A stretch of DNA of 64,000 bases. Origin: Thelephora terrestris. Taxonomy: Eukaryota; Basidiomycota; Agaricomycetes; Thelephorales; Thelephoraceae. A program made the translations under genes and the position numbers. Positions 1-27,355 of the stretch are shown one piece after another. How positions within the stretch are numbered: the first letter of the stretch is position 1; the number at the start of each line of letters is the position of its first letter. Under the pieces are notes generated by a model that saw nothing but the letters and a program-made list of their open reading frames with translations, had not been told where the DNA came from and made no database searches. The stretch covers positions 1,054,001 through 1,118,000 of the forward strand of contig WIUZ02000003.1 of NCBI GenBank assembly GCA_015956445.1, read 5' to 3'.

Positions 1-203
1 TCGTACCCAGCTTGTTCCCAGAATTCGGCAGGAGCATTGTGAGCGGTGAGAAAGTCGACGGCGATTTGGTTATCGTGAGCGATGTTGGCAGGGGAGTCAT
101 ACAAATGTTGCTCCACATCGTAGGGAGCATCCGTCTCGAAGGACGGAGTAAAGGGGGTGGCGGCAACATTGAGCACGGCGTTGTTGGCAACGAAGGCAGA
201 CAT
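1..203 (-). CDS. Family A minus-strand protein, N-terminal part (cut by window edge)
   Basis: From the ATG at 203-201 the minus strand stays open to the window edge, about 67 codons. The translation starts MSAFVANNAVLNVAATPFTP and continues through a segment ending FWEQAGY, closely matching the minus-strand ORF of copy 2 (11237-10632) and the ORF of copy 3 (from 26549). The start is supported by all three copies beginning with a similar MSxxxAN motif. Function is unknown. The gene is divergent from the 207-residue ORF at 864, with an intergenic region of about 660 bp that holds the GAAATCCCC repeats. Confidence 0.6.
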   Translation of the reverse strand, partial: MSAFVANNAVLNVAATPFTPSFETDAPYDVEQHLYDSPANIAHDNQIAVDFLTAHNAPAEFWEQAGY

Positions 204-413
204 AGTAGTAGCAGATGTTTGAGAGAGGAGAGTAGTACTGGTGATTATGGGAGGAGAAAAGAGGCGATGGGAGGAAAAGACCAATAACCTCCTGGATTAT
301 ATACGGCTGATTCAATAAGAAACCAAAAGGGGAAGACAAAGAATCATTAACCATTCAAAGCCCGATTAGGATAAACGAACCCTTAGCCCCAATCGCAATC
401 CCATCAAACCCTG

Positions 414-545
414 AGAAATCCCCATCGATCAAGAGAAATCCCCAGCATGCTTCTATTACCACCATGAAACAGGGAAAATCCCCGTTGATCAACAGAAATC
501 CCCATCACGCTTCTATTGCTACCATGAAACACGAGAAATCCCCAC
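414..545 (+). repeat. GAAATCCCC repeat cluster in divergent intergenic region
   Basis: Several copies of the short motif GAAATCCCC(A), often followed by TCGATCA or preceded by GAG, are spaced irregularly between the two divergent ORFs. The same cluster recurs in copy 2 (about 11447-11575) and, on the other strand, in copy 3 (about 26200-26340). Its position between two start codons suggests a shared regulatory region; that role is inferred. Confidence 0.6.
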
Positions 546-711
546 CATTCCCATAAATGACTCATTCGCTATTGTTTCCCTGTTCCGTACTCAGTATCGG
601 TCGTCCTAAGCCCCACTTCCCTGACTCATCCATCCTACCCTAAAGTATGCACAGACCATGTTGACTCCTGTTTGACTCGTTGTAGAATTATGACTCCTGT
701 AGAGAACTGGG

Positions 712-718
712 TATATAA
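712..718 (+). promoter_or_regulatory. TATA box of the 207-residue ORF
   Basis: TATATAA lies about 145 bp upstream of the ATG at 864. The same sequence, in the same context (GGGTATATAAGGAAGAGCG), is conserved in copies 2 and 3. Conservation across diverged copies supports a core promoter. Confidence 0.55.
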
Positions 719-863
719 GGAAGAGCGTTCGCTCCTTTCTTTTCCCCATTCTCAATCTCTTCTGTACTCCTCTACCCACAACCTGAATAAAAAGTAAGCT
801 GAGGAATTCTCCTCACGTCTTACCTCTTCTGACTCATTTCAGCAGGAATCCTCCTGCCAGTGT

Positions 864-1487
864 ATGTTTAGTGCCCCTAATCCCTTCCCCTCTACAAGTC
901 CAGTCCAACGACCAGTCGTCCCTGACGCTAGGAGATCTATTTGGGAGTATAAACTCATCAGAAGTCTCCAAGTAAACCGAACCACCGGCTTACTTACCCA
1001 TTTCCCTTACTATCGACCCTTTGCAGCTCTCGACGCAGGAGTCACTACTCCTCCTTTCCTTCTGGGCGCAGATCATCAATTCCTTTGGAATTCGGATCTT
1101 ACTGAGAGCGTCCTCGCGACTGTCTACTTCAGTATTAGCCCAGCCTTTTACTTCCCCTCCCCACGTGTTCATCTCACCACTAACATCCATACTCATTCCC
1201 CCGCTATCATTGTTCTTTGGTGGGAGATCCCAACTGAATTACCTTATTCAGTTATAGAATATCTTGTCAATTTCGAACGCCTTAGCGATCAAGACTTCGA
1301 ACCCTTCGTGCAGCAACTAAATCAGTTCTGCCAAGACTATCACTCACCCGTTCACCCTTATCAGACAGAGTCACCCCTCTCTCTTGATATTCCTCCTCCC
1401 CTCGTCTCTACACCCGGAACCCCCTTCAAAACTAGACCCGACACCCCTCACCCTTCCGCTAATCCTCTAGCGCCCCACAAACAGTAA
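864..1487 (+). CDS. Family A conserved 207-residue protein (copy 1)
   Basis: Complete ORF from ATG 864, 207 residues, no recognised domain, no obvious signal peptide; the centre is rich in aromatic residues (for example AFYFPSPRVHL and IIVLWWEIP) and the C-terminus is proline-rich and low complexity. Comparing codons by eye with copy 2 (11889-12512) gives roughly 59 differing codons, of which only three change the residue (I/V, S/P, P/L). This is a strong sign that the protein was maintained by selection while the copies diverged. Copy 3 (25885-25262) differs from copy 1 at about five residues. Function is unknown; similarity to retroviral proteins was not recognised. Confidence 0.7.
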   Translation: MFSAPNPFPSTSPVQRPVVPDARRSIWEYKLIRSLQVNRTTGLLTHFPYYRPFAALDAGVTTPPFLLGADHQFLWNSDLTESVLATVYFSISPAFYFPSPRVHLTTNIHTHSPAIIVLWWEIPTELPYSVIEYLVNFERLSDQDFEPFVQQLNQFCQDYHSPVHPYQTESPLSLDIPPPLVSTPGTPFKTRPDTPHPSANPLAPHKQ

Positions 1488-1507
1488 GCAGGCCCACAAC
1501 CCTGACA

Positions 1508-1581
1508 ACCAGGCTCCTCCTCACTTCTGGGAGCAGGCTGGGTACGACGACCCCAACAAAACTGTTATGAACAATGAACGG
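1508..1581 (+). other. Sliver of another family A ORF between two insertions
   Basis: The 50-odd bases after the end of copy 1 translate on the plus strand to NQAPPHFWEQAGYDDP, which matches the HNAPxxFWEQAGYEDP segment of the family A minus-strand protein. It is therefore a remnant of a fourth, opposite-orientation family A copy (or relative) into which copy 1 and the Gypsy-like element both inserted. It runs up to the presumed LTR start at 1582. Confidence 0.5.
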
Positions 1582-3001
1582 TGTCGGACATGAGAACAAC
1601 CATGTCATTATTTATGATAATTCACCACAACAAGATTAGATTAGATAAGATAACAGTCTTATCAGATAAGATTAGATTAGATAAGGACAAGAAACTCATG
1701 GAAAGTTACAGAATGTTACAGAATGTTCAGGAACATCCTAGAATGCGCCGGAACATCCTGGAACTTGCCGGAATGTTCTAGAAGGTGACAGAACGTCACA
1801 CCCCATGTGACACCGGTCACGCTTTTGTGACATTTTGTCACACTTGTGACGTCTGTCACACCATTAATTACCATAGAATACAGTAGAAGGCCATAGAACG
1901 TTCTAGAATAATCTCACATGAAAAAGTATATAAAGAACTCACCCCCAGTTCTAAGGAAAGGCAACTCACCCATAACCTTTTACCCCTCTCTCTCTCTACC
2001 CAACAGCTGTTGGCCACTGGCCAGTAGTTGTCCCCTCTATCCCCTCTTCTCTCTATAACTCACCCGCTTTTACTCTACCCCTTTTCACCAAGACCCCTAC
2101 TTTGCCTCACCTCCTTAGGCCTGAGTGGTTGAGTGATTTTCAGTAATCACATACCATTTTGAGCCCCACCTCTGTGTGAATAAGTTCTAAGTTTGGACTT
2201 CTGAATAAGCTTAGTACACTTGACTCTGTAACGTAGCAATATCCTTATCTCTGTTAGTGCTGAAGGCAGACCCTTCAGGCAGAGAGTATTCTACCTCAGA
2301 CTAGTGACTGACTAGGTGACAGACAGATTTAGTAATAGTACCACATTGGTATCCGACGTATCAGTATCTCAGACATATCAAGAAGTTTATCTTATCAAGA
2401 CAGGTTCTCAAGTTTCAGCAGTATCAAGTTATCAGACGTATCTCAGCAGCATTTGGACGTACCTCAGCAGTATATTGACAGATCATCAAAACTACTCAGA
2501 CATATCAGCACAGCCTCAGAAGTATTAGCACAGCCACCCCCTTAACACAGCCACAGCACAGCCACTTACACAGCCACAGTGCACAGCATTCTACACAGCC
2601 TTCTTCACAGCCTCATACACAGCCTCGATCGTATCCGTTTCACACATCAATATCTCCATTCCCGATCATCAGCGTAGATCAGGAACTCCATTCTTATCAA
2701 GATCAGCAACCCCCTTTACATTCTTACTAGGTGTTTGGACCAGGGAATATACGTGCAGTAGTGATAAAGGTTACTGAACCCCTCTGAACACATCTGAAGG
2801 ACCTACAAACTCCTTCAGCGAACTCATCAGGACAAGGAGCCGGAAAGTACGAAACCCCGCCCACCCTGTGGAGTTGATAGTTGGGATAACTGACTTCTCA
2901 ACCAGCCTACTTAGTTGTTAACGCTTAGCCTCTAAGTAAACCAAGAAGGACTAGTAAGAGTTCTTATAGACCTCTTCACTACAACCCCAGCCAACTCGAC
3001 A
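1582..3001 (+). repeat. 5' LTR of the Gypsy-like element
   Basis: About 1.42 kb starting TGTCGG and ending CTCGACA, an imperfect short inverted repeat of the TG...CA kind, directly followed after two bases by a tRNA-like primer-binding site. A TATATAAA box lies at 1927-1934. Upstream of it are repeated GAATGTTC/GGAACATCC and TGTGACA/TGTCACA motifs (about 1710-1860), which may be regulatory. No partner LTR is in the window, so the boundaries rest on termini and the adjacent binding site. Confidence 0.6.
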
Positions 3002-3003
3002 TC

Positions 3004-3021
3004 TGGAGCCCACGGCGAGGG
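3004..3021 (+). other. Putative primer-binding site
   Basis: TGGAGCCCACGGCGAGGG begins with TGG, complementary to the CCA end of a tRNA, and starts two bases after the LTR end. The tRNA species was not determined. Confidence 0.45.
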
Positions 3022-3108
3022 GCTTCAATAAAACACCATCTTATCACCACAAACACCATTCCCACCATCACACCTTCATCACCCTCCATCTCCTCTACAT
3101 CAACCAAC

Positions 3109-5973
3109 ATGACTTATATCTCAGATACAGAAAACGAACAACATCCCTTCAATGGAGTTGAAGACCTCCTTACTCAATCAAATTCCTACTTGGAATTACC
3201 AGCCCCCAACAAATCACGTGCACCAGAAACCTTCACAGGAGCTGCCAATACCTTGGAGCCCTTCTTGGAGAATTACAACCACCTATGCAACCGCTATGAT
3301 GTCACCTCATCAAAGGAAAAGTACCAAGGACTCATTCGATACTGTAGCCCTGGAATCGCTAACCTGCTGCGAACTTGGCCTTCCCATGCCAAAAGGGACT
3401 ATGGAACTCTATTGGTTGAGCTCGATTACTTCTTTGGGGACAAGCAAGGATCCCTGAATGTGGGAAAAATTGAAGCCTTCACTACCAAATGGAGAAAATG
3501 TCGAATGGACACCCTTGACAGATTCAAGAAATATCAAATCAAATTCCATCAGTTGGTAGGACGTGCCAGAGAAATGAGGAAGATCTCCACTAGAGATGTC
3601 AACAGATATTTCTGGGAAGGTTTGAATGCCTCCTTCAGGCGACAAGTTGAAGCCCAGATGAGAATGGTTACGCCTCACTTGGATGTGACAGTGCCATTCA
3701 GCATTGCAGACATAGTAGAAGGAGCTGATTCAGTCCTTAACCCTTATAGGTTTGATCAGCACCTGGCAACCAAAGGCGGATACCAGTCCTCTGAAGAAGA
3801 AGAGTCAGACCAAGAGGAATCCACTAAGCCATTTAAGCTCTCAGGATATAACTCAGAAGACGAATCAGATGATGAACCAAAGCCTCTTATCCAACACAAG
3901 TCACCCCTGACTCCACCTAAATCTCCTCCTAAGTTACCCACAAAGACCAAGAAGCACAAAGGAAAGCAGGATGAAGACTTCAACCAGCTAGTGGATGACC
4001 TGAGTAACCTCAAGATTGATGACCCCAAGTACTGGGTCAAATATGTACACTTTGCTCAGCAGTACCCACATCTCCAGAATTACGTAGAACCTCCTCCTAA
4101 CCGAAACTCAGCAAGACCAAATCAACCTAGAAGACCATTCCAGAGGGATCTACCACCTCATCAGAACTTTGGCAACCAACAATTCACCAACCCCCAGTCA
4201 CGACAAGGACCAAATCCCTCCTATCGACCACCTTTCAATCCATCACCCCAGAGAATGTCTCAACCCCCTCCTCAAAGTTTCTCTATGGCAACAGGCCCCA
4301 ACGCAATCAGACAGAACTACACCTGTTTTGGTTGTGGACAGCAGGGTCACCACATTAGGGCATGTGAGGAAATAAACAAATTGGTAAAAGCTGGGAAGAT
4401 AGTAAAGGACCCAACGTCAGGACGGTTACAGTGGCCTGACAACTCAAGAATCTACCGAGCACCTAATGAGACATGGATACAAGCTATTACTAAACATGTT
4501 GCAGCTGAAGTCCATTATGCTGAAGCCTTGCCATACAACCCTACTTTGGAAACTGCATGTAACTACATAGGAGTGGATAGGTATGAAGACGACGCTGATA
4601 CTGATGAACAAGAAGCGGAATTAGGATGGACCTCTGGGGAGGTAGAACACTGTCAAGCTTTTGGTGTTGAAAGGACCACCAAAATCAGCAAGGAACACAG
4701 GAAGAAGGTACAGCAAGTCTTACCTAGCCGACCCCAAGGGATGGAGAAGCTCCCCAGGAGCAGGGAAGCAAAGAGTCCTGGTAGGCCACAGCACCCAATC
4801 AAGAATCACGTCAATCTTAACAGCAACCAGACGGGGAACATCCGGTCTGCCTCTAACCCCAACAAGGGCGTAATTAAAGGTAAAACGGACAACCAATTGC
4901 TTCCAATGGAGGTTGACCAGGAGGTCACTGCAAAGCCTGCTAACCACAACAGGAAGGACTCGACGCATTTGGAGCAAACCAATGGTCCCAAAGTCACTAA
5001 TCCCAGGACTACCAAGAAGCCAGACAGTTCAGCAATTGCCACTAAAATACTAAACACCAACATTACCCTAACTGTACAGGAAGCAATCGATGCTGCGCCT
5101 TCTTTGCGACGAGGCCTTGTGAGCGCAATGAAACAAGGGCATGAGGTCTCTGTCCCAACGCAGCAGAAAATTGGCCTCCTCGCCAAGGTGATTGAGAAGG
5201 AAGAACAGCAACCATTTCAAGCTGTAGTCCAGGAACAATCAGAAGATGAAGAAGACTATGATCAAGAAGATGAAACAGACCTTGTGGAGCCTACAGTAAC
5301 AGTGCCCAGGGATGGATTGATCAAGATACCAGTCAATGTGGCAGGGACTATGATGACTGGAGTCTTTGACAGTGGATCCCAACTCAACATCGTTAATCAA
5401 AAGTTAATAGAAGCAGCAGGCATACCTTGGTCCAACGCCGAGGAACACAGGATTCCGATGATGTCAGTTGATGGAAATCTCTCCCAATGTGCAGGAATGA
5501 TACCTTGTGCAGAGATGACAATGAAGACTACAAAAGGAAGAGTTATGGCACCCGGAAATCTCTACGTAAAGAAGAATGCAGGATTTCAGCTACTGCTTGG
5601 AAGAGAATGGGGTGTAGACCATAAAGCCACTTGGATAGAAGATGGTAGGAATTCTCATTTGAGAATTATTAACAATAAAGGTTGGCGAAAAATCAGACCC
5701 CTTCCCTCTACATACGGATCTCGGGACAATGAAGAAGACAACAAAAATTTTAGGTATCAACCAAGGGATTATCAAGCAAGAGTATATGCAGTAGGAGGAA
5801 ATAAAGAAATTGAAGAAGGCGAGATACCGGACAGCGAGGAAGAAGAAGGAAGCCTCGTGATCGGAAGTAATATGGCCGGCGTCGAAACGGAAGCCCTGGA
5901 GGAAAGAGAAAATGATTTTATTTACTCACCAGTAACGATCGTGAGAGAAGACCCACCGACGCCCGCGCAATGA
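3109..5973 (+). CDS. Gag-protease polyprotein of the Gypsy-like element
   Basis: ORF of 954 codons from ATG 3109. Residues about 30-200 resemble the Ty3/Gypsy gag core (ETFTGAANTLEPFLENYNHL, then an LVELDYFFGDK-like stretch). A Pro/Gln-rich region follows, then a CCHC zinc knuckle at residues 406-419 (CFGCGQQGHHIRAC). A retropepsin-like domain has the active-site triad DSG at residues 754-756 (GVFDSGSQLNIVN) and a downstream LLLGREWG motif. This order is typical of Gypsy gag-pol, but the frame ends after the protease without reverse transcriptase. It would form the particle shell and process the polyprotein in the cytoplasm. Confidence 0.8.
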   Translation: MTYISDTENEQHPFNGVEDLLTQSNSYLELPAPNKSRAPETFTGAANTLEPFLENYNHLCNRYDVTSSKEKYQGLIRYCSPGIANLLRTWPSHAKRDYGTLLVELDYFFGDKQGSLNVGKIEAFTTKWRKCRMDTLDRFKKYQIKFHQLVGRAREMRKISTRDVNRYFWEGLNASFRRQVEAQMRMVTPHLDVTVPFSIADIVEGADSVLNPYRFDQHLATKGGYQSSEEEESDQEESTKPFKLSGYNSEDESDDEPKPLIQHKSPLTPPKSPPKLPTKTKKHKGKQDEDFNQLVDDLSNLKIDDPKYWVKYVHFAQQYPHLQNYVEPPPNRNSARPNQPRRPFQRDLPPHQNFGNQQFTNPQSRQGPNPSYRPPFNPSPQRMSQPPPQSFSMATGPNAIRQNYTCFGCGQQGHHIRACEEINKLVKAGKIVKDPTSGRLQWPDNSRIYRAPNETWIQAITKHVAAEVHYAEALPYNPTLETACNYIGVDRYEDDADTDEQEAELGWTSGEVEHCQAFGVERTTKISKEHRKKVQQVLPSRPQGMEKLPRSREAKSPGRPQHPIKNHVNLNSNQTGNIRSASNPNKGVIKGKTDNQLLPMEVDQEVTAKPANHNRKDSTHLEQTNGPKVTNPRTTKKPDSSAIATKILNTNITLTVQEAIDAAPSLRRGLVSAMKQGHEVSVPTQQKIGLLAKVIEKEEQQPFQAVVQEQSEDEEDYDQEDETDLVEPTVTVPRDGLIKIPVNVAGTMMTGVFDSGSQLNIVNQKLIEAAGIPWSNAEEHRIPMMSVDGNLSQCAGMIPCAEMTMKTTKGRVMAPGNLYVKKNAGFQLLLGREWGVDHKATWIEDGRNSHLRIINNKGWRKIRPLPSTYGSRDNEEDNKNFRYQPRDYQARVYAVGGNKEIEEGEIPDSEEEEGSLVIGSNMAGVETEALEERENDFIYSPVTIVREDPPTPAQ

Positions 5974-5985
5974 CGCGAAGCGCTA

Positions 5986-8306
5986 GTGCTTGATGAAGAC
6001 AACAGAAGAAGCGAGACAGATGATGAAATCGGACGGATCGGGACGGAAGAAGATCCACGGAAGCCGGAGGAAACACGCGCGGAAAAGGAGACAGAAGAAT
6101 ATTCAGACGAGGATATAAATGGATGGTCGAACGAAAATATTATTAGTTCAGACCTATATGAAACTTATATTAAAATGGTCCGGAAAGGAGCTTCCGACGA
6201 GGAATGGAACGCGCTGTGCAAACTCGAACGAAAGAAGGCCGTGTGCGACCAGAAGCCGTGGACAAGGCTATGTAGTGAAGACTTGGAGAATGAAGACAGG
6301 GCCGCAACAAACGACCCTGCCCCACACGAAGCCGAACTATCTACGCGACCCCACCCGGAAAGCCCTCAACCCTCTCAAACTCTCGCTACCCCTGAACTGG
6401 ATCCGCCCTCAACCCTACCAACCTCCAGGAAGCGAAGATGGAGCCTGAAGGAAGAAGATCAGTCCACCATCGCCAAGGTAACGCGAATGCGACGGACAAG
6501 AAAACTTACAGAAAAGGCCCAAGGAGACGAGTTCCGAAGGTACTTGCAAACGTTCGAGCGGCAGGATCAGAAGCAGGTCAAAGGCCGTAAACGACCAGTG
6601 GTTGTGGAAGCCTGTGCATTTGCGACAGAAGCAGTACCAGGTAACCGGCATGCAGACCTAGATAGCGCAGACAATGAGTTGGAAAATGAGTGGGAAAGAG
6701 AATTCAATAGAACCGCACTTACCAATGTGGAGAAAATTCTAGAACCAAGCAGAATGGACATGGATGGGTCAGACGACCTGGAATCTAGCCCGAATAGCCC
6801 TGCTGGGCCAGACGAAGAAGACGACGAAAGGTCTAATCAACAAAAAATTACCGATCACGGAAAACACAAAAACGACATATCCGAACTTACTGACACAAGA
6901 AACGTATGGAGACCGATGGGAATGGAAAGAGATGGGTCAAACGACCCAGGATCCAGTCCGAATAACCTCGCGGGACCCAGCGTTGACGAAGAAGAAAGTT
7001 CTGTGGAATCAAGGTTAACCGATCACGGAAAACATGAAGAAAACATATCGGGACTTACCACGCGGTACGGGAAACTTGAGACAATTCACGAAGAATGGAA
7101 TGGGTCAGACGACCCAGGATCCAGGCCGAATAGACTTGAGGAGTTGAGCACGGACGAAGAAGACGAGAATGAAGAACAGTGGTTACCCGATCGCGGAAAA
7201 CACAGGTCCAACATATCGAGACTTTTCCCAAAAAGATACACATCAGCAGAAAACAATGGCCCTAACGACAAATACAAACGGCCCACCCTGGATAAAGGAA
7301 AAGTAGCGCACGAACACGTAGAAGAATGGGAACCTTACCAAGTAGGGACGAAAGAAGATAGCAAGAAGACAAGAAGGCGCCAGGCACCGAATGACACAAC
7401 ATTCGGAACCGGCAGTCAATCATTACCCGGAGATGACCATGCCTGGTATGGGGAACAATGCCGCCACACCCAAAAAGGCAAAGGCCGCGAAAGCGCCCGA
7501 CCAGGCGCGCAGGAATCCGACATATTGTCAGAATATCCTGACGCATTTCAGTACGACCCAGACAACGGAATAGAAAAAGGATACATACCTCCGCCACCAG
7601 AAACCTTGAGTGGAGTGCTGGCAGCCAGCGAAATGGTAATATTTGACGAAAATAGAGCGCAAAAACAAAGGTACTTCTACGCCCGAGACGTAGACCTGAT
7701 AACGGCAAGCAATCAGACCGGACTTCCAACCAGTTTTCACGGACACGTGACCATACGCCTAGATGAAGTGTCAGACGGAACGGCCGTATTCTTACCAAGA
7801 CAGACTCGGCTAGATAGAGCCCGGAAATATGTGTTCCATCAAAGAAGACATGCGGCCCCGAAAAGACGGATAAAGGTGTACGGGTCGGAACAGAAAAACA
7901 AAACCGCCGAAGGAAACAAGGTGATCTGGAATGTAATGGAACAGGACGAGCTAGAAGGAGTGCTAGATGAATTGAGCAGGGACCCGATGGTCGTGAATGA
8001 GGAAATAAGAACTTACACAGTCAGTAAATTGGACGACGGCACAATCGAAGTCCGACGCGGACTACCTGCGAAGAATGGAGGTAACGAGCCCTCAACCCAG
8101 GATCCAGAGAAACCTAACCTAGATAAGGAGAATAAAGAGGTCAGCAACGCCGATGAGGAAACGAAGAAAGCAGAAGAAGAAACATTTACCCAATTAGGAA
8201 GTAACCCACAGACTTCCGATCACGCGCCTAAATCTGAGGCCCACATGGAACGGAAAAGGGGCTTGGAAACGTGCACAACCGGTGGAGACCCTGTAGAAAC
8301 CTTTGT
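5986..8306 (+). CDS. Second ORF of the Gypsy-like element, first stretch
   Basis: Long, strongly charged reading frame directly downstream of gag-protease. No recognised enzymatic domain. About 6746-7240 encodes three imperfect repeats of about 50 residues with the pattern GSDDPGSxPN ... DEE ... DHGKH ... NIS, and the rest is Glu/Arg/Lys-rich. Near 7530-8060 a less repetitive part (EYPDAFQYDPDNGIEKGYIP onward) could be a folded domain. The stretch is interrupted at 8306 by a foldback element; coding-like sequence resumes at 9535. Its place between protease and the expected reverse transcriptase is unusual, and the function is unknown. Confidence 0.5.
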
Positions 8307-9531
8307 CACTGGGGACAAACCCCAGTTTCCCGGCCCAGGACATCGTAAATACATTGTAAGGAAATGGAAAATGTGCCTGGCAATGACCCACCTGGTACAT
8401 CATAAATACATTCAAAATGTCCAGGCCAATTTCCTTAGAGTGTTGCCAGCACAGGAAATGCTCAGTACATTCATGGTGTTCCTGGTCATGTGATCTCAGT
8501 GTTCCCATTAGGTAATCCATGGGAACACCATGAATTTTCCCAAAGAAATACCCATGATGTCCCTGAGTGGCTCATTGAAAGAAAACCTTGAGTGAACCCA
8601 CAGTTTCCCAGGTCATGTGACCTTGATGTCCTGATTAGGTAATCTGAGGGTAAACCATGAATTTTCCCAAAGAAAGTAACCATGGTGTTCCTGAGTGGCT
8701 CATTCACAGTGTTCTTTCCAGTGTTCCCAGTGGTGTGATCACGGTGTTCCAAGTCGGTAAAATTCAAATTGAGCCTTAACGGTGCGCCGGAAGTGTACCA
8801 GTGTGGTAAATCCTGAAAGTACTAAGGCCTTCGACCATGATGTACCAAAATTCGGCAAACCATCAGGAAACTGTGGGAACACTGAAAGGAAACTGAGAAA
8901 TTGGGAACATTTTGAATGAGTTTATGATGTTCCCAGTGTCCCCAGTTTCCTTTCAGTGTTCCCACAGTTTCCTGATGGTTTGCCGAATTTTGGTACATCA
9001 TGGTCGAAGGCCTTAGTACTTTCAGGATTTACCACACTGGTACACTTCCGGCGCACCGTTAAGGCTCAATTTGAATTTTACCGACTTGGAACACCGTGAT
9101 CACACCACTGGGAACACTGGAAAGAACACTGTGAATGAGCCACTCAGGAACACCATGGTTACTTTCTTTGGGAAAATTCATGGTTTACCCTCAGATTACC
9201 TAATCAGGACATCAAGGTCACATGACCTGGGAAACTGTGGGTTCACTCAAGGTTTTCTTTCAATGAGCCACTCAGGGACATCATGGGTATTTCTTTGGGA
9301 AAATTCATGGTGTTCCCATGGATTACCTAATGGGAACACTGAGATCACATGACCAGGAACACCATGAATGTACTGAGCATTTCCTGTGCTGGCAACACTC
9401 TAAGGAAATTGGCCTGGACATTTTGAATGTATTTATGATGTACCAGGTGGGTCATTGCCAGGCACATTTTCCATTTCCTTACAATGTATTTACGATGTCC
9501 TGGGCCGGGAAACTGGGGTTTGTCCCCAGTG
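8307..9531. mobile_element. CACTG-ended foldback DNA transposon, CACTA-like, non-autonomous
   Basis: A 1225-bp palindromic element: left arm 8307-8895, spacer 8896-8942 (47 bp), right arm 8943-9531. Both arms are 589 bp and symmetrical to the base; the parts compared read as identical. The ends are CACTGGGGACAAACCCC and its reverse complement, and the element is flanked by TGT at 8304-8306 and 9532-9534. Removing it restores a continuous coding-like stretch of the host ORF. CACTG/CACTA ends with a 3-bp duplication are the hallmarks of the CACTA (EnSpm) superfamily. The spacer contains its own small hairpin (GGGAACAT ... ATGTTCCC). There is no transposase inside. Arms contain repeated subterminal motifs such as GGAACACCATGA and TCATGTGA. 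Confidence 0.75.
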
Positions 9532-9534
9532 TGT

Positions 9535-10223
9535 ACACCTGGAAAAGGATAGGACCACCCAGGAAATAAAATTATTAGGAGCACCAGAGGGTATAAAAGA
9601 GGTCGAACTCACCTTGGACGAAATATCACCAAATCTCGAAGAACAACCCCAAGAATCAGTCAAGACGGAGCCCACCTCGAATGGTGAGTGTTATTGTGGC
9701 TGTAGGAAGTGTCCTGCACCTAATAATCCTCAACAGCAGTCCCGAAACGACCCTCGAAGGGTAGTCAGCCTAGTCCGACCAAGTCTGAACCACGACTTAC
9801 CAGGGCAAGGCGACCAGCCAATGGAAGAAGTAATGGACGTCGAAATCCCATCTCCAGAAAACCAAGTTCCCGGACTGTTAGCGGCGGCCCACCTCGTCCA
9901 GTTAGAAGAGAGTATGTTACCCCCCGGAGATCACTCGTTCTTCGTGTTCAGCGCAACGCTACTAGGAGGCGAAGGCCCCTCCCAATACGTACGCCAGGGA
10001 CAAGCCTATGTCCGCCTTTACGCCTCAAGCTCGGCCAACCTCAATGAACCACCGAGGCCACCGCCAACGTCCCGCGTAGCTAACGCGCATGTCCAAGTCT
10101 TCGTGTCAAATGCGCCAGCCGGACCGGAGCCCCAAGAAAACTTAGCAGTTCCCCGCAATACCCCCTTTCATGATCAGTCCGTTACCCACAATGTTATCTT
10201 ACCTGATTCAGCGCCACCATACA
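9535..10223 (+). CDS. Second ORF of the Gypsy-like element, middle stretch
   Basis: Coding-like stretch from the right flank of the foldback to the GGTTC target duplication at 10224. It includes a cysteine-rich CYCGCRKCPAP segment near 9690-9720 and then a more hydrophobic region (VPGLLAAAHLVQLEES, HSFFVFSATLLGGEG) that may be folded. No family was recognised. It is interrupted at its 3' end by the family A unit. Confidence 0.45.
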
Positions 10224-10333
10224 GGTTCTGTCACGAACGCGTGACATAGTAGCCAAGATCTCACAAGTAATCCAAGACATTGGTCTCATTCGCAGTAATA
10301 ATAGTACAAGAGTAGTTAAAAATAACTACGAAC

Positions 10334-10888
10334 TCAGACAAGAACAAACAGGTCGATATCACATGAACAGTTCTGAGGAAGAGGGCAACGATGAGCGAAG
10401 TGGTGGGGGTTATGAATACTCTCAGGACAGTAAGACCACACTCGCGTCACCGGATCCTGCCAACACTCCCTACACCCCAACACATCATGAGACAAACTAT
10501 CATACATCTCTCGCCGCACGTCCGACAAGGCTGCGCTCACTAAGGCGAACCCATAGCGGTCTTGGAGACCCGCCACTTCCACCTTCAACTTCATCCTCAC
10601 CTGACGTGACTTGTCGGAGGGACGACAACGTTTACCAGAACGAGTCATCGGACTCTTGCGGGTCTTCTTCCTCTGGGACCTCTCCACCATCTGGCGAACT
10701 GGGGCAGGACTCCAGGGAGGGGATGGAGGGAGAGGAACGCCCTGATCCTGGCGGTGGCGAAGGGATGACTGGGGACTTGCAAGGGGGGTCGGTGCAATAA
10801 GCCCCGTGACATTGGTGTCCGAAATATCGGAAGAGAGATGCCTGGAAAGGTCCCCAATGTTCCAAAGCAAAGTGAGAGAAGTCATCAT
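10334..10888 (-). CDS. Family A overlapping minus-strand frame with Cys/His-rich end
   Basis: A second minus-strand frame, 184 codons, overlaps the 3' part of the 201-residue ORF and runs past it. Its last 110 residues are well conserved with the corresponding frame of copy 3 (26985-27521), including basic (KSPMTRSGKRCRPSDKSRQ) and Cys/His-rich parts (LGCRECWQDP, NPHHFAHRCPLPQNCSC) that suggest zinc binding. The non-overlapping end is conserved as protein and is therefore probably coding. How it is expressed relative to the overlapping ORF is not known. Confidence 0.45.
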   Translation of the reverse strand: MMTSLTLLWNIGDLSRHLSSDISDTNVTGLIAPTPLASPQSSLRHRQDQGVPLPPSPPWSPAPVRQMVERSQRKKTRKSPMTRSGKRCRPSDKSRQVRMKLKVEVAGLQDRYGFALVSAALSDVRREMYDSLSHDVLGCRECWQDPVTRVWSYCPESIHNPHHFAHRCPLPQNCSCDIDLFVLV

Positions 10889-11237
10889 TCAAACTGTTCA
10901 TGATGACGTACATGAGGTCCACCCGCTTCTCCAATTTCGCAATCCGATCCTCCCTCTCCCTCTCCATGGCGTCCAGTAAAAGGACGGCTCCAGGGTGTTG
11001 AGCTCGGACCACAGGCCCGGAAAGCCTGGGATCCTCGTAACCAGCCTGTTCCCAGAACTCGGCGGGGGCGTTGTGAGCGGTGAGGAAGTTAATGGCGACC
11101 TGGTTGTCATGGGCAATGTTGGCAGGGGAGTCATACAAATGTTGCTCCATGTCGTAGGGAGCATTCGTCTCGAAGGACGGGGTGAAGGGGGTAGCGGCAG
11201 CATTGAGCACAGCGTTGTTGGCAACGAAAGAAGACAT
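10632..11237 (-). CDS. Family A minus-strand protein (copy 2)
   Basis: ORF of 201 residues from ATG 11237-11235. It contains the segments AATPFTPSFETNAPYDMEQH and FWEQAGYEDPR, a predicted helical stretch (LLDAMEREREDRIAKLEKRV), the segment LEHWGPFQASLFRYFGHQCH, and an acidic/proline-rich end. Copy 3 has the same order plus about 25 extra residues before the helical stretch. No family recognised. It is divergent from the 207-residue gene with a shared upstream region. Confidence 0.6.
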   Translation of the reverse strand: MSSFVANNAVLNAAATPFTPSFETNAPYDMEQHLYDSPANIAHDNQVAINFLTAHNAPAEFWEQAGYEDPRLSGPVVRAQHPGAVLLLDAMEREREDRIAKLEKRVDLMYVIMNSLNDDFSHFALEHWGPFQASLFRYFGHQCHGAYCTDPPCKSPVIPSPPPGSGRSSPSIPSLESCPSSPDGGEVPEEEDPQESDDSFW

Positions 11238-11446
11238 AGTAGTAATATGTGGAGAAGGTGGTAGTGGTGTTGGGTGGGAGTGGAAAAGAGACGATGAGGG
11301 GAACGATCATTAATCCCCCTGACTTAAATACATCCTGACTCAAAGAAAACCTAAAAGGGGAAAACAAAAACCCATTATCCATTAACGTCCCCATTAGGGT
11401 AAACGAACCCTCAACCCCGATCGCGATCCCATCAATTCAGAGAAAT

Positions 11447-11575
11447 CCCCATCGATCATGGGAAATCCCCATTTATCCTCTACTGCCGCCGTGAAACGAG
11501 AGAAATCCCCACCGATCATGAGAAATCCCCATCAGTCTTCTATTACCACCATCGATCGTAAGAAATCCCCATTAT
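11447..11575 (+). repeat. GAAATCCCC repeat cluster (copy 2)
   Basis: Five or six copies of GAAATCCCC(A) lie between the divergent start codons, as in copies 1 and 3. Conserved position suggests a regulatory role; inferred only. Confidence 0.55.
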
Positions 11576-11737
11576 GCTTCTAGTGACTCCTTTACTATTG
11601 TTCTCCTATTTCATTTCGTTATTTGTCGCTCTAAAGTCCCACTCCCCTGACTCGTCCAACCTACCCTAAACTACGCACAGACCATGTTGATTCCTGTTTG
11701 ACTCATTGTAAAGTAATGACTCCTGTAGAGGATTGGG

Positions 11738-11744
11738 TATATAA
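11738..11744 (+). promoter_or_regulatory. TATA box of the 207-residue ORF (copy 2)
   Basis: TATATAA about 145 bp upstream of ATG 11889, in the same conserved context as copies 1 and 3. Confidence 0.5.
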
Positions 11745-11888
11745 GGAAGAGCGTTCGCTCCTTTCTTTTCCCCATTCTCAATCTCTTCTGTACTCCTCTA
11801 CCTACAACCTGAATACAAGTAAGCTGAGGAATTCTCCTCACGTCTTGCCCTTTCTGACTCATTTCAGCAGGAATCCTCCTGCCAGTGT

Positions 11889-12512
11889 ATGTTCAGTGCC
11901 CCTAACCCCTTCCCCTCTACAAGTCCAGTTCAACGCCCAGTCGTCCCTGACGCTAGGAGATCTATCTGGGAGTATAAACTCATCAGAAGTCTTCAAGTAA
12001 ACCGCACCACCGGTTTACTCACCCATTTCCCTTACTATCGTCCCTTTGCAGCTCTCGACGCCGGAGTCACCACTCCTCCTTTTCTCCTAGGAGCCGATCA
12101 TCAATTCCTTTGGAATTCAGATCTTACGGAGAGTGTCCTTGCGACTGTTTACTTTAGTATCAGCCCAGCCTTTTACTTTCCCTCCCCACGCGTTCATCTC
12201 ACCACTAACATCCACACCCATTCTCCTGCTATTATCGTTCTTTGGTGGGAAGTCCCAACTGAACTACCTTACCCCGTTATAGAATATCTCGTCAACTTCG
12301 AACGTCTTAGCGACCAAGACTTCGAACCTTTTGTGCAGCAACTCAACCAGTTTTGCCAAGACTATCACTCACCCGTTCATCCCTACCAAACCGAGTCACC
12401 TCTCTCTCTTGATATCCCTCCTCTCCTCGTCTCCACGCCCGGAACCCCCTTCAAAACCAGACCCGATACCCCTCACCCATCCGCTAATCCTCTAGCGCCC
12501 CACAAACAGTAA
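11889..12512 (+). CDS. Family A conserved 207-residue protein (copy 2)
   Basis: Complete ORF from ATG 11889. Compared with copy 1 (864-1487) nearly all of the roughly 59 codon differences are synonymous; only three alter the residue. No signal peptide or known domain was recognised. The ORF ends 20 bases before the unit's terminus, so coding sequence reaches almost to the end of the element, which is unusual for an LTR. Confidence 0.7.
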   Translation: MFSAPNPFPSTSPVQRPVVPDARRSIWEYKLIRSLQVNRTTGLLTHFPYYRPFAALDAGVTTPPFLLGADHQFLWNSDLTESVLATVYFSISPAFYFPSPRVHLTTNIHTHSPAIIVLWWEVPTELPYPVIEYLVNFERLSDQDFEPFVQQLNQFCQDYHSPVHPYQTESPLSLDIPPLLVSTPGTPFKTRPDTPHPSANPLAPHKQ

Positions 12513-12537
12513 GCAGGCCTCCAACCCTGACAGGTTC

Positions 12538-19680: not shown

Positions 19681-22600
19681 TGTCAGGAACATGGTATTTT
19701 TAAACTTTTATAACACGCTCTTTCTTCGAACTCTTCTTACCAATTCTTATGTTTGAATGCTTCACATTCCTTATCCTTCACATCATTCATTCAAAACACA
19801 CAAACGCGCATACATTCACGGCAATACGGAACAACTGGCTATACAAGTGCTATCAACGTCCCATCAGAAATCGACTCTATCTACGGCAGGCCTCATGGTC
19901 ATCACCCTTCCATCCCGGAGATCGAAGTGCTGGCCCCTCCTCGCTAGGACCTCCCCGAACATGGCGTCACCATCTTCGGCACTCAGCTGAACGACTAGTT
20001 CAAGCCGATAGGAAGAGATACCTTCGAGCGGACCGATCAGCCTCCCAGATGTCACCGAACTGCTGAACACCTGGTCCCACATCTCCATCACCGGGTGACT
20101 GCTCGACAGCACTATCGACGTAGTCGGCAAGCGACCCTCCGTCTCCCTCGTCGGACCCCTGGGTGGGATCCTGTCTTGCGAGGCGAAGCTGGTGTCGGAG
20201 TTGGATCTCGGACTCGACCTGTCGGTAAGGACGGTGGACCCGATATCGGAATCCTCGCTCCTCACCTCGACCAGATTGGTCACCATCTGACTCGACTGGT
20301 CGAGGGTAAGGATTAGCCGATGGAGCCATACGATGAGCAGGACGGCGTCGAGAGCGTTTGCAACGTTGCCCCTTAGTCACCGGACGTACCTCGGCGACTC
20401 TCGGAGCATCTTCGGCTCGGTCAACCTCCATGACCTCATCCTCGATCTTCACCAACCGTTGGATCGGCTGCAAGACGCAGCGCCCACAGTTCTCCTTGTC
20501 GGAAGCAGCCAACGTAGAAGCCGGGCCCGGAGTCGGAACGGGAACCGCGTTCTCAATCGGAGGCGTCGCATAGGACGACGGGTTAGGCGATGGGAGTACC
20601 ACCTCGTCGGCGTACTCCAGCTCGAACGGAACATCGGCTGTTCCCTGACCAACCAATTTGGGACCCTCTTTACAGTTGCAGGTCTTGTCCTGCAAGGACT
20701 CGACCTGCGCTGTCAACACAGCCACCACGTTCTCAAGCTCTTCCGTCTAGAAGAAGTGTCAGCTTCCCTCATTTCGTCTTCGAGATGAGGAAAGCTACCT
20801 TTTCATCCCTCCTGGCCAACGCCCCCTTAATGTTGTTATCCCTAACCTTCAACCCGGCGATCAACTCTTGATGGTTGGCGACCATTGCCTCCAACGCTTC
20901 GTTCGTCCCCTGCTGGAAGGCCGCCAGAGTCTCCTTCATCTGAAGACCTTCTGCCGACAGACGAAGGACGTCTGCCTTTGCCTCCTTCACCTCCCGCTCC
21001 AAACGTTCAACCTAGACAGTTTGATTAGTCGAGAGTCATACTCGAATATTCAAACGGAGAACCTACCTTACTCTCCCCCTCCCGAACGAGCGACCACAAC
21101 AACGAGGTGGCGGCGGTGGCATGACGGACGGCCCGAGGAACGGTTGCTCCGTGCTCCAACAGGTCCTGATCGTAGATTCCCCTTTGCAGGGTATACCAGA
21201 GCTCCTTCTTGATCGGATGCTCCAACTCTCCGAACCTACCCCTCATCCGGAAGGCCACCTTCTCGGCGATGATCGTGCGGACCCAGAGTTCATCATCCCA
21301 GGTCAACCCCATCAAATGAGGCATCGTCTCCCTGAGACGTTCGGCGTCCACTTCCGTGACGACCTCCAAGATCTAGAAGCCGTTAGCTGAACATCAACGC
21401 CCGAAAGAACGGACCTCTACCTAGAGGAAGGCGTTAGTGCTAGCACAGAAAGCTCTAAGTCTCCCCCATACCTGGTCATCCGTGGTATAGGGAGTCCCAG
21501 CCGCACAGGCGTAGGACTTGCGAGCGGCGGCACGACGGTCGATGCGAGAGATGGTGGAGGAACCATTGGCGACTTTGTAGGTATGGTTGTTGGGGAAGGA
21601 CATGTTTTGGTAAGATGATGGGGAAGTGGCTGGTGTTACTGATCAAGGATGGCTCCAAGAAGACGTCCTTCTTATAGCCTAGATCGGTGATCCTTCACGT
21701 GACCTACCTCGACGAACCTCATTGGTCCGGGTCACATCAACTTCCGCCCCTGTACCATCCTCGTTGGCTTACTACATCAAGCTGACACCTCGGCCCGCGG
21801 GACGGCCTTGGAAGAACTTCGTTCCGGAACGCCTAGAACGCGCGCGCACTAAAATTAGGTCTCAAGACCCTGATGACCCCCTTATGACATCACGAACCCC
21901 TTTTACGACCCCTCATGACTTTACGATTACGATCAACCCTGGACCCTGATCACACACGTGGACAGTCACATCACAGTCTCCTAACCGGAGGAAGGACTCG
22001 CCGCTATTCGGAAGCATCGCCTTAGGATCCTTCTGGTTAGCTCAGCGCATGTGGAGTAGCCGTTAGCGTGAAACGCCGGCGAATCTGTAATCCCTCATGT
22101 CCCATGAGTCTAGGCCCGACCTCCTCATGTTCGGACGCACGTTGAGGTTGCCACTTGTTCGTGATGCTGCTACCGCCTACAGACAACAAGGGATGCTGTA
22201 TGGTCTCTATCTTTGGCCTCTCCAAAGGAAGCATCCAAGAAGATTCTCACCTGACCCTTGGGTGTGGTCCCCAGGTACGAACTTTCATGACCCCATGCCC
22301 CTTTTCTTTTAGGACTAGTGTTATCTTTACCCCTATGTTTTATGCGGACATTCCTTATCTTTTATGCAATCCTTCACACGCTAGTAAGGCCCTTTGTCCT
22401 TTATTCTCCCACACATCATATTTGTTCGCTTCCCTTACTTAGCGTTCTCACACTCCTTATCTCCCTTTGTTCGGACTTGATAAGGGTATAGTAGGGTATT
22501 GACGTCATGGCCACTTGTTTAGTATAAGTAGCAACTGTGGCTGTATCGTAGTACCTTAGTTTTGTTACCTCAGGAAATCCTCTGCCCTTCTCAGCCCAGT

Positions 22601-22977
22601 TGCAGTTAAGGACAAGTCAGAGTTTCTTGTTTGATCCAAGACATCCCCCATCTGCTCTCCCTCCCGCTCTGCGCGTCAACTGCGCCTCGTAACTATAGAC
22701 TCCCCGCAGTCATATTAGAACACCTCGAGCGTCCAGTCGATCAACTGGTGGAGTTATCAAATCCTGTTGTAGGGATCAACCCTTGCTTGTTAAACCGAAC
22801 GAAGTACGGTTTAGGTTGGGTTTCTCTTTAGGATTTCGACCTGACTTGTAGTGACCTCGGACAACCTACCGGAAGAATAGAGACGTGATCGTTCTCTCAC
22901 AAGCTAGTTGGACTAGTGAGTACTCTGCGGAGTCGGCTCAGTGAACTGGTAGTTGTTGGGGTAGAGTGGCCCTGACA
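19681..22977 (-). mobile_element. Family B LTR-type unit, complete copy carrying a spliced gene
   Basis: Complete 3297-bp unit in minus orientation: TGTCAGGGCCAC at 22977 reading leftward to ...GTTCCTGACA at 19681, flanked by the 5-bp duplication CCATT (19676-19680 and 22978-22982). It contains an apparently intact multi-exon gene (21603-20000) and about 1.37 kb of upstream sequence (21604-22977) with no other gene. The ends fit a solo LTR. An intron-bearing gene in the same orientation as the unit would, however, be hard to carry through an RNA intermediate, so a gene-carrying DNA element is a serious alternative. It looks whole. Confidence 0.75.
20000..21603 (-). CDS. Family B cargo gene, about 465 codons, spliced
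   Basis: From ATG 21603 the minus strand gives four exons with three short GT-AG introns, all in phase, ending at a stop at 20000; predicted length about 465 residues. The N-terminus is MSFPNNHTYKVANG and a middle region (LMGLTWDDELWVRTIIAEK, then ELWYTLQRGIYDQDLLEHGA) looks folded. Next come helical coiled-coil-like segments (LEREVKEAKADVLRLSAEG). The last exon is acidic and Pro/Ser-rich with an Arg-rich patch (KRSRRRPAHR) resembling a nuclear localisation signal. No known family was recognised. The first exons are also present in the truncated copy at 15275. Confidence 0.6.
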
Positions 22978-25236: not shown

Positions 25237-25261
25237 CGAAGTGTCAGGGTTGAAGGCCTGC

Positions 25262-25885
25262 TTACTGTTTGTGGGGCGCTAGAGGATTAGCGGACGGGTG
25301 AGGGGTATCGGGTCTGGTCTTGAAGGGGGTTCCGGGTGTAGAGACGAGAGGGGGAGGGATATCAAGAGAGAGAGGAGACTCTGTCTGATAAGGGTGCACG
25401 GGCGAGTGGTAGTCTTGACAGAACTGGTGGAGTTGCTGCACGAAGGGGTCGAAGTCTTGGTCGCTAAGGCGTTCGAAGTTGACGAGGTATTCTATAACCG
25501 AATAAGGTAATTCAGTTGGAATCTCCCACCAAAGAACGATAATAGCAGGAGAATGAGTATGGATATTAGTGGTAAGATGAACTCGTGGGGAGGGAAAGTA
25601 AAAGGCGGGACTGATACTGAAGTAGACGGTAGCAAGGATGCTTTCGGTAAGATCCGAATTCCAAAGGAATTGATGATCGGCTCCTAGGAGGAAGGGGGGA
25701 GTAGTGACTCCGGCGTCGAGAGCGGCAAAGGGACGATAGTAAGGGAAATGGGTGAGTAAACCGTTGGTTCGGTTTACTTGAAGACTTCTGATGAGTTTGT
25801 ACTCCCAGATAGATCTCCTAGCGTCAGGGATGACTGGTCGCTGAACAGGGCTTGTGGAGGGGAAGGGGTTAGGAGCGCTGAACAT
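25262..25885 (-). CDS. Family A conserved 207-residue protein (copy 3)
   Basis: Complete ORF from ATG 25885. About five residues differ from copy 1 (two V/I changes, T/N, E/D, N/H), mostly conservative, in spite of clearly diverged nucleotide sequence. The stop lies 20 bases from the unit end as in the other copies. Function unknown. Confidence 0.7.
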   Translation of the reverse strand: MFSAPNPFPSTSPVQRPVIPDARRSIWEYKLIRSLQVNRTNGLLTHFPYYRPFAALDAGVTTPPFLLGADHQFLWNSDLTESILATVYFSISPAFYFPSPRVHLTTNIHTHSPAIIVLWWEIPTELPYSVIEYLVNFERLSDQDFDPFVQQLHQFCQDYHSPVHPYQTESPLSLDIPPPLVSTPGTPFKTRPDTPHPSANPLAPHKQ

Positions 25886-26548
25886 ACACTAGCAGGAGAA
25901 TTCCTGCTGTAATGAGTTAGAAAGGGTAAGGCGTGAGGAGAATTCCTCAGCTTACTTTTATTCAGGTTGTGGGTAGAGGAATACAGAAGAGATTGAGAAT
26001 GGGGAAAAGAAAGGAGCGAACGCTCTTCCTTATATACCCAATCCTCTACAGGAGTCATAATTCTAAAACGAACCAAACAGGGATCAACATGGTCTGTGCG
26101 TAGTTTAGGGTAGGTTGAATGAGTCAGATCGAGGGACTTAGGGCGACGAATGGTAATTGCTAATACGGGGTTAATAGAAGAACGGACTAATGGAAGCGTC
26201 TCAGGGGATTTCTCGTGTTTCGTGGTAGTAATAGAAGCATGGGGGGGATTTCTCCTGATCGATGGGGATTTCTCTTGTTTCGCGGTAGTAGTAGAAGACA
26301 GACGGGGAATTCCCATGATCGATGGGGATTTCTCGGAATTTTGATGGAATTGGATTGGGGCTGGGGGTTCATTTATCCTAAAGGGGATATTTGTTGGATA
26401 AATAAATTATTGTTCTCCTCTTTCGGTTTTCGTTGAGTCAAGGTGTATTTAAGTCATGGGGATGAATGATCGTTTTCCCTCATCGTCTCTTTTCCACTCC
26501 CACCAAACACCAGTACCACCTCCTCCTCTTAAGTCGTCATTCTTCATC

Positions 26549-27355
26549 ATGTCTGCCTCTGACGCCAATACCGCCATGCTCAATGCTGCCGCCACCCCCT
26601 TCACTCCGTCTTTCGAGACGGACGCTCCCTACCTCATGGAACAACACCTATACGACACTCCCGCCGCCATCGCTCAGGACAACGAGGCGTCCATCAACTT
26701 CCTTTCGGTCCACAATGCTCCTCCTCAGTTCTGGGAGGAGGCCGGCTATGAAGACCCCCGTCTTGATCGTTTCGATGCTCCCCATGCTGGAGCAAGGCGT
26801 CTTCTTAGCGTTATGACGGAAGCGGAGTATAACGATCCTATCCGGGCTCGTTTGGATCGCCCTGGAGTTCCTCGTTTGTTGGATGCTATGGAGCGGGATA
26901 GGGAAGATAGAATCTTTAGGCTGGAGAAGAGGATGGATACCATGTACGTGGTTGTTAACAGTTTGAACGAGGATTTCTCTCACTTTGCTTTGGAACATTG
27001 GGGACCCTTCCAGGCATCTCTCTTCCGGTACTTCGGCCATCAATGTCGAGGGGCTTATTGCACCGACCCCCCTTGCAAGTCCCCAGTCATCCCTTCGCCA
27101 CCACCAGGATCAGGGCGTTCCTCTCCCTCCATCCCCTCCCTGGAGTCCTGCCCCAGTTCGTCAGATGGTGGAGCAATCCCAGAAGAAGAAGAACCGCAAG
27201 AGTCCGATGACTCGTTCTGGTCAACGTTGTCGTCCCTCCGACAAGTCACGTCAGGTTCGGATGAAGTTGAAGGTGGAAGTGGCGGGTCTCCAGGACCGTT
27301 ATGGGTTCGCCTTAGTGAGTGCAGCCTTGTCGGACGTGAAGCGGGAGATGCATGA
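26549..27355 (+). CDS. Family A second protein (copy 3)
   Basis: The ATG at 26549 (MSASDANTAMLNAAATPFTP) is chosen because it aligns with the starts in copies 1 and 2; the frame is open further upstream but that part is not conserved. It encodes about 268 residues. It shares the FWEEAGYEDPR and LEHWGPFQASLFRYFGHQC segments with copy 2 but has an additional stretch (ARRLLSVMTEAEYNDPIRA). The C-terminal part after about 27230 is unlike copy 2 because the frames end differently. Function unknown. Confidence 0.55.
   Translation: MSASDANTAMLNAAATPFTPSFETDAPYLMEQHLYDTPAAIAQDNEASINFLSVHNAPPQFWEEAGYEDPRLDRFDAPHAGARRLLSVMTEAEYNDPIRARLDRPGVPRLLDAMERDREDRIFRLEKRMDTMYVVVNSLNEDFSHFALEHWGPFQASLFRYFGHQCRGAYCTDPPCKSPVIPSPPPGSGRSSPSIPSLESCPSSSDGGAIPEEEEPQESDDSFWSTLSSLRQVTSGSDEVEGGSGGSPGPLWVRLSECSLVGREAGDA

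What the first reader, a model, noticed from the sequence alone, without database searches (positions are those of the whole stretch)
864..12512. A 207-residue protein inside LTR-type units evolves under strong constraint
Copies 1 (864-1487) and 2 (11889-12512) differ at roughly 59 of 207 codons, yet only three differences change the residue; copy 3 (25262-25885) changes about five. LTR sequence is normally non-coding and drifts. This pattern implies a protein kept functional through many rounds of copying, in an element with LTR-like ends and no capsid or polymerase genes.
Basis: seen in the sequence. Interest (0 to 1): 0.8.

Follow-up and report, generated by a model that had tools for sequence, protein, structure and literature searches.

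The report
Protein-coding solo LTRs in one genome
Retrotransposon-like end pieces, scattered in many copies through this genome, carry genes that natural selection has preserved, although such ends are normally thought of as non-coding.

Summary
Over 33 genomic copies median dS is 0.50 and dN 0.022. The constraint is frame-specific: common variants show 0.03 of the neutral amino-acid-change ratio, against 0.85-1.16 in the unit's spacer.

The ORF lies in a 2.3-kb unit, TGTCACG...CCCTGACA; 24 of 29 units have perfect 5-bp target-site duplications, and 250 exact right ends exist. The unit also carries a constrained antisense gene, predicted to be spliced.

Insertions are young (private changes about 1%), while copies differ by 19-25% at spacer and third positions and are mosaics. 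So selection acted on mobile lineages; the copies are not conversion products of one locus.

Best reading: solo LTRs of a Ty3-like retrotransposon with accessory genes inside its LTRs. A second family here has gene-bearing LTRs with gag-pol attached. No full-length partner was found for this family, so membership is unproven.

The parts
1..1507 (+). Unit 1 (LTR-like), cut by the window start; full unit 2,313 bp, begins outside the window; TSD ACCAG on both sides
864..1487 (+). ORF207, copy 1
10224..10228 (.). Left TSD GGTTC of unit 2
10229..12532 (+). Unit 2 (LTR-like), complete, 2,304 bp
10912..11237 (-). Antisense gene of unit 2, exon 1 (frame A)
   Evidence: constraint; predicted intron
10842..10911 (-). 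Predicted 70-nt intron (GTACGT...TTTCCAG) of the antisense gene; spliced frame open to its end in 26 of 29 units
10334..10841 (-). Antisense gene of unit 2, exon 2 (frame B; Cys/His-rich C-terminus); predicted spliced product 277 aa
10632..11237 (-). Unspliced frame-A ORF of the antisense gene, 201 aa in this copy, overlapping exon 2
11738..11744 (+). TATATAA, present in 29 of 29 units at -150 to -153 from the ORF207 ATG
   Evidence: position read
11819..11870 (+). Predicted 5'-leader intron (GTAAG...YAG), both signals in 29 of 29 units
   Evidence: position read
11889..12512 (+). ORF207, copy 2; a GTAAGC donor-like signal overlaps the stop codon in 29 of 29 units
12533..12537 (.). Right TSD GGTTC of unit 2
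25242..27626 (-). Unit 3 (LTR-like), complete, 2,385 bp, TSD CTTCG on both sides
25262..25885 (-). ORF207, copy 3
19681..22977 (+). 3.3-kb LTR of the other (chromovirus) family, used here as comparison

Best explanation
The 2.3-kb units are solo LTRs of a Ty3/gypsy-like retrotransposon whose very long LTR is itself gene-bearing. Layout inferred from the signals: U3 holds an antisense gene (277 aa if spliced as predicted, Cys/His-rich end; the unspliced frame is 201 aa in window copy 2 and 245 aa in 12 of 28 units). A conserved TATA box starts the genomic RNA at R. U5 holds the sense 207-aa ORF, so it would be the first ORF in the 5' leader of the genomic RNA. Each round of reverse transcription copies the LTR, so only lineages with working LTR genes persist (shown: frame-specific purifying selection). 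Copies exchange segments freely, most strongly across R, as strand transfer between two packaged RNAs would do (shown: mosaicism and the linkage minimum; inferred: the cause). LTR-LTR recombination then removes gag-pol and leaves coding solo LTRs (inferred from the other family). The two proteins are most likely accessory or regulatory factors of the retrotransposon, acting perhaps in trans from solo LTRs (inferred).
For: 5-bp TSDs: 24 of 29 units; 25 of 28 short end-pairs perfect against 0.8 by shuffling. Constraint: median dS 0.50, dN 0.022 over 528 pairs; frame controls; antisense gene exon 1 at 0.21 and the unique part of exon 2 at 0.14 of neutral for common variants. TATA, leader-intron signals and the terminal GTAAGC in 29 of 29 units. 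Another family in the genome has the same kind of ends and 5-bp TSDs (GATGC and ATCAC perfect in two cases, one mismatch in a third), antisense coding sequence in its 3.3-kb LTR, and a full-length copy with RT, RNase H, integrase and chromodomain between two 99.97% identical LTRs. Only 2 of 97 readable left flanks of that family carry the flank seen before its 3' LTR, so solo LTRs dominate there too. Linkage minimum at unit position 1600 or 1675 at three thresholds, in or next to the predicted R; 0 of 200 circular shifts as low. The test was run after R had been placed from the signals; a coarser first look had the preset 1580 point lowest of seven in 4 of 5 distance bins.
Against: No LTR pair with gag-pol was found for this family. 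The 100 left and 100 right flanks that were listed show no recurrent PPT or PBS. Of 24 Ty3-type pol matches one (C11) has same-strand ORF207 copies on both sides, 18 kb apart, but that pol is of the comparison family, pieces of the comparison LTR lie between, and one of the two copies has its own TSD; the other 23 are not bracketed by listed copies. AATAAA near R occurs in 17 of 29 units only. The antisense protein shows no homology to the other family's LTR protein (hhalign probability 0.1). The linkage minimum may simply reflect crossover in the best conserved stretch; in 200 bootstraps it fell in 1475-1675 in 110, above in 48 and below in 42. In the overlap of the antisense frames, frame B alone shows no constraint (1.42, 14 variants). 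Five of 29 units lack a matching TSD. The sampled copies were the best matches to copy 1's ORF or to the copy-2 antisense protein, which favours intact ones.
Confidence: 0.68

Rival explanations
1. The 2.3-kb unit is the whole mobile element: a non-LTR, integrase-type DNA transposon or passenger with short TGTCA/TGACA inverted ends, whose two genes are its own mobility or accessory genes, possibly moved in trans by the chromovirus integrase that recognises similar ends.
For: 24 of 29 units stand alone with their own TSD, as do 25 of 28 short end-pairs. No two-unit element with shared TSD was seen and no recurrent PPT or PBS in the listed flanks. The end sequence CCCTGACA is shared with the chromovirus LTR. 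Young insertions without visible full-length donors fit a self-contained unit.
Against: No Pfam transposase or other significant domain in either protein. Terminal inverted repeat of only 5 bp (read). The TATA-R-like layout and the linkage minimum near R fit an LTR. The same solo predominance is seen in a proven LTR family.
Confidence: 0.2
2. A host gene family: dispersed copies kept in place by selection on the host, with gene conversion making the shared variants.
For: Low dN/dS, mosaic copies, and 141 of the 150 best-scoring matches without a stop.
Against: Copies sit inside units with intact TSDs, so the sites are young. Units nest in other repeats and are themselves interrupted. Private changes are much less constrained (0.35) than variants shared by 4-16 copies (0.055), as expected once a copy has landed.
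Confidence: 0.05
3. Chance open frame, or constraint on the DNA or RNA sequence rather than on a protein.
For: About 100 bp around the promoter is conserved without being coding (unit 1501-1600).
Against: Variation is concentrated in third positions over 620 bp. For common variants, four of the other five frames give 3.9 to 14 times the neutral ratio; the fifth, an antisense frame that shares third positions, gives 0.08 but with 12 changes that make or remove a stop.
Confidence: 0.02

Closest known systems
Ty3/gypsy chromovirus family of this same genome (3.3-kb LTR, C4 copy)
   Same: TGTCA...CCCTGACA ends, 5-bp TSD, very long LTR with antisense coding sequence under constraint (dN/dS 0.11 and 0.13 for two ORFs, 11 copies each, no stops), mostly solo LTRs
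   Different: It has full-length copies with gag-pol (one read; 8 pol matches at 99-100%). No sense ORF of 100 aa or more is listed at the right end of its LTR in L037. Its LTR protein is not detectably related to ours
Mouse mammary tumour virus sag (LTR-encoded superantigen)
   Same: A protein encoded in the LTR of a retroelement, with recombination between copies (passages of PMC11998498 seen)
   Different: sag is a vertebrate virus gene for which that paper reports positively selected sites (and calls it also under purifying selection). ORF207 lies in the presumed U5 and is strongly conserved; no sequence relation was tested
Additional ORFs of plant LTR retrotransposons (Grande, Retand; review PMC7264820)
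   Same: Extra, often antisense, conserved genes of LTR retrotransposons, thought to be accessory factors (passages seen)
   Different: There the extra ORFs are described as lying most often between pol and the 3' LTR, in the internal region. The phrases 'in the LTR' and 'within the LTR' do not occur in that paper. Here they lie inside the repeat and so survive solo-LTR formation

Membership tests
LTR of a retrotransposon (general) | TG...CA ends | tested here: met
   First seen at BLAST-defined boundaries in 18 copies, where the TGTC and TGACA ends recur within a few bases of the boundary. The 29 units were found by an end pattern with mismatches allowed, so for them it holds partly by construction
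LTR of a retrotransposon (general) | Constant-length target-site duplication | tested here: met
   5 bp, 24 of 29 units; 25 of 28 short pairs
LTR of a retrotransposon (general) | Two copies in direct repeat around an internal region with PBS and PPT | tested here: inconclusive
   None found in 100+100 listed flanks, 41 end pairs and 24 pol loci. The survey is incomplete: listings stop at 100 rows and at the 150 best matches
LTR of a retrotransposon (general) | U3-R-U5 signals (TATA, poly-A signal) | tested here: inconclusive
   TATATAA 29 of 29; AATAAA 17 of 29; no transcript data
Ty3/gypsy (Metaviridae) | gag-pol with RT-RNase H-integrase order in the element | tested here: inconclusive
   Met for the comparison family; no internal region found for this one
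DNA transposon with TIRs | Transposase gene and terminal inverted repeats longer than the terminal few bases | tested here: not met
   TIR 5 bp (read); no significant Pfam domain in either protein

The most novel reading that the evidence does not exclude
Gene-bearing LTRs are the real unit of selection here. Solo LTRs in very many copies, with no gag-pol partner left in the genome, persist and spread as a freely recombining population of two-gene elements, moved in trans by the integrase or reverse-transcription machinery of related chromoviruses that carry the same kind of LTR.
Probability: 0.2. Interest if true: 0.85.

Novelty: new variant of a known kind. Interest (0 to 1): 0.62.

Why it matters
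LTRs are treated as regulatory, non-coding sequence, and solo LTRs as dead remains. Here the LTR-like unit holds two constrained genes, so losing gag-pol would leave many coding loci behind (141 of the 150 best-scoring ORF207 matches have no stop). That makes a testable case for accessory proteins supplied in trans from solo LTRs. The combination of young insertions, old and reshuffled variation and frame-specific constraint also offers a way to see retrotransposon recombination, possibly including transfer at R, from one genome.

Tried and rejected
Reading the 9.6-kb C6 locus (L041) as a full-length element: rejected, it is two separate units, one interrupted by a foreign solo LTR. Reading the recurrent 5.6-kb units (L037, L038) as an autonomous form: rejected, they are the 2.3-kb unit plus a nested 3.3-kb LTR. 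A cluster of seven same-strand ORF pairs 10.2-11.0 kb apart as LTR pairs: not supported in the 3 of 7 where a member's TSD was read, since that member has its own TSD; the other 4 were not read. Homology of the antisense protein with the other family's LTR protein, suggested by eye: not supported. AlphaFold of ORF207 from one sequence: mean pLDDT 37, unusable, so no fold search was run. PDB, PHROGs and viral contigs: no significant match. Paper searches were made; one search returned none. In those listings I recognised no report of conserved genes inside LTRs of fungal retrotransposons, but for nearly all papers only the listing was seen, and subscription journals are mostly not held. Passages were seen of PMC12037069, PMC11998498 and PMC7264820.
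Full report
What is there. The window lies in a 40.6-Mb assembly of 60 contigs. The three 207-aa ORFs exist as described, copy 3 on the minus strand.

The unit. Comparing 20 ten-kilobase loci showed that similarity to copies L028 and L009 ends about 20 bp after the ORF stop and, in uninterrupted copies, about 1,660 bp before its ATG. The ends are TGTCACGAACGCGTGACA...GCAGGCC.ACAACCCTGACA, usually with 5-bp duplications outside. In the window, unit 2 is 10229-12532 (TSD GGTTC), unit 3 is 27626-25242 (TSD CTTCG), and unit 1 ends at 1507 (TSD ACCAG) and starts outside. Genome-wide there are 170 exact left ends and 250 exact right ends, with 0 in the reversed-pattern control. I paired 65 of the 100 listed left ends: 33 have an exact right end 2.2-2.4 kb away, 21 have one farther off and 11 have none within 25 kb. 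Four of the longer cases were read, and in all 4 the unit is interrupted by the comparison family (L037, L038, C4, C6).

Age of insertions. From flanks printed by pattern searches (64 of 100 left and 100 right flanks used), 28 pairs under 2.5 kb could be formed: 25 perfect TSDs, 1 with one mismatch, 2 with more. Shuffled pairings give 0.8 perfect on average, at most 4. Of 13 longer pairs, 8 are perfect and 5 are mismatched, which in a nearest-end pairing includes mispairings. Among 29 units taken whole from the loci, 24 have perfect TSDs; the 5 that do not are L012, L020, two in L027, and L034. Even the most divergent unit (L026, ORF 74-75% identical to copy 1) has a perfect TSD. With that unit left out, private changes amount to 0.9% per site and copy over the unit, and 1.2% in the spacer and at third positions. 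Mean pairwise differences are 12% over the unit, 19% in the spacer and 25% at third positions of the ORF (28 units). So the copies diverged largely before they landed where they are now.

Selection. From the loci I took 35 distinct full-span ORF copies. Two have length changes; of the other 33, three contain internal stops. Twelve partial matches, some in overlapping loci, were left out. Over the 33 copies (528 pairs) median dS is 0.499, dN 0.022, ratio 0.051; nearest-neighbour dS is 0.086 or more. By frequency, with one outlier dropped (32 copies), N/S relative to the neutral expectation is 0.35 for singletons, 0.26 for variants in 2-3 copies and 0.055 for variants in 4-16 copies. The rise for private changes is what decay after insertion would give. 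Frame controls on 28 units, common variants: 0.03 in the true frame, 3.9-14 in four other frames, 0.08 in the one antisense frame that shares third positions, and 0.85-1.16 in the six frames of the spacer. Of the 150 best-scoring genomic protein matches, 9 carry a stop. These 150 were the ones scored of 414 candidates, and my loci were best matches too, so intact copies are over-represented.

The second gene. Variation by codon phase changes from frame A (unit 701-1000) to frame B (101-400) on the minus strand, with a very conserved overlap between them. Among signals conserved in over 90% of units, the only donor-acceptor pair of 40-400 nt that joins A to B is a 70-nt intron, which gives a 277-aa product open in 26 of 29 units. 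Common-variant ratios are 0.21 for exon 1 and 0.14 for the unique part of exon 2. In the overlap frame A gives 0.41 and frame B 1.42, on 14 variants each. So the overlap is conserved as a whole, and frame B is not separately supported there. Neither protein has a significant Pfam, PHROG or PDB relative.

Signals. TATATAA at -150 to -153 from the ORF ATG, GTAAG at about -70 with YAG at -18, and GTAAGC over the ORF stop codon occur in 29 of 29 units; AATAAA just after the predicted start occurs in 17 of 29. Read as an LTR, this puts the antisense gene in U3 and ORF207 in U5. Whether the terminal GTAAGC is used as a splice donor into a downstream gene is a guess.

Recombination. At 248 informative sites in 28 units, r2 falls from 0.10 below 20 bp to 0.039 beyond 1.5 kb (unlinked expectation 0.037), and 0 of 200 permutations match the decay. 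Recurrent mutation at such divergence may add to the low r2 at short range. L031 and L036 are identical at 62 of 62 sites in the first block, differ at 3 of 62 in the second, and have other nearest relatives in the last two. Having placed R at about 1510-1660 from the signals, I asked whether linkage breaks there. Of seven preset points, 1580 had the lowest ratio in 4 of 5 distance bins. In a scan the lowest ratio lies at 1675, 1600 and 1675 for three thresholds, and 0 of 200 circular shifts are as low. The bootstrap puts the minimum within 1475-1675 in 110 of 200 resamplings, above it in 48 and below in 42. Strand transfer at R between two RNAs explains this, but crossover in the conserved promoter stretch would also do so.

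Comparison family. At C4 our unit is interrupted by a complete element: LTRs of 3,307 bp, 99.97% identical, TSD ATCAC, around a 5.08-kb interior with zinc-knuckle, protease, RT, RNase H, integrase and chromodomain matches. Its LTR also carries antisense coding sequence with dN/dS 0.11 and 0.13 and no stops in 11 copies each of two ORFs. A third family, with 60-61% identical pol, has an LTR that encodes a relative of one of these ORFs (33-38% identity, E 2e-7 to 3e-9), although by BLASTN the two LTRs share only two matches of 33 and 23 bp. So genes in LTRs are found in at least two related families here, and they outlive DNA similarity. In the first of them 8 pol copies stand beside at least 307 LTR left ends, so the lack of full-length copies in ours is less odd than it looks.

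What is not shown. No two-LTR element of our family was found. Of 24 Ty3-type pol matches, one (C11) has same-strand ORF207 copies on both sides, 18.1 kb apart, but it is a comparison-family pol with pieces of its own LTR between, and one of the copies has its own TSD; the other 23 are not bracketed by listed copies. Only the 150 listed copies were compared. Recurrent PBS or PPT flanks are absent from the 100 right and 100 left flanks listed; two repeated flanks there look like duplicated loci. Hence I say that it looks and behaves like a solo LTR and do not file it in a named retrotransposon family. The functions of the proteins are inferred, not shown.

Verdict. It is a new variant of a known kind (LTR retroelements with accessory genes), unusual in that the genes sit within the repeat and survive in many solo copies.

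Noticed in passing
window 13900-22977: A 3.36-kb, 98.5% identical palindrome (15587-18939) lies between two inverted pieces of the 3.3-kb chromovirus LTR; a copia-type gag ORF (18768-19703) begins in its end.
   Followed up: partly
window 8307-9531: A 1.2-kb stretch, 98.5% identical to its own reverse complement, follows a Gag-like ORF with weak zinc-knuckle and protease matches (3109-5973, below Pfam's cut-offs) and an 835-aa ORF (5986-8493) without any Pfam match.
   Followed up: no
window 58641-64000: Two inverted blocks of tandem repeats, period about 45/90 bp by the spacing of self-matches, that keep long frames open on both strands.
   Followed up: no
L042 169-3102 and L037 687-4010: LTRs of two chromovirus families (pol 60-61% identical) share an antisense LTR-encoded protein at 33-38% identity although BLASTN aligns only 33 and 23 bp of the LTR DNA.
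   Followed up: partly
L028, around unit 1: Window unit 1 appears inserted in the antisense gene of another unit of opposite orientation (ORF 78% identical): by eye the two flanks code for the same peptide stretch as that gene.
   Followed up: partly
window 31886-32767: Minus-strand ORF with an SF3b1 match, probably a host gene piece in this repeat-rich stretch.
   Followed up: no
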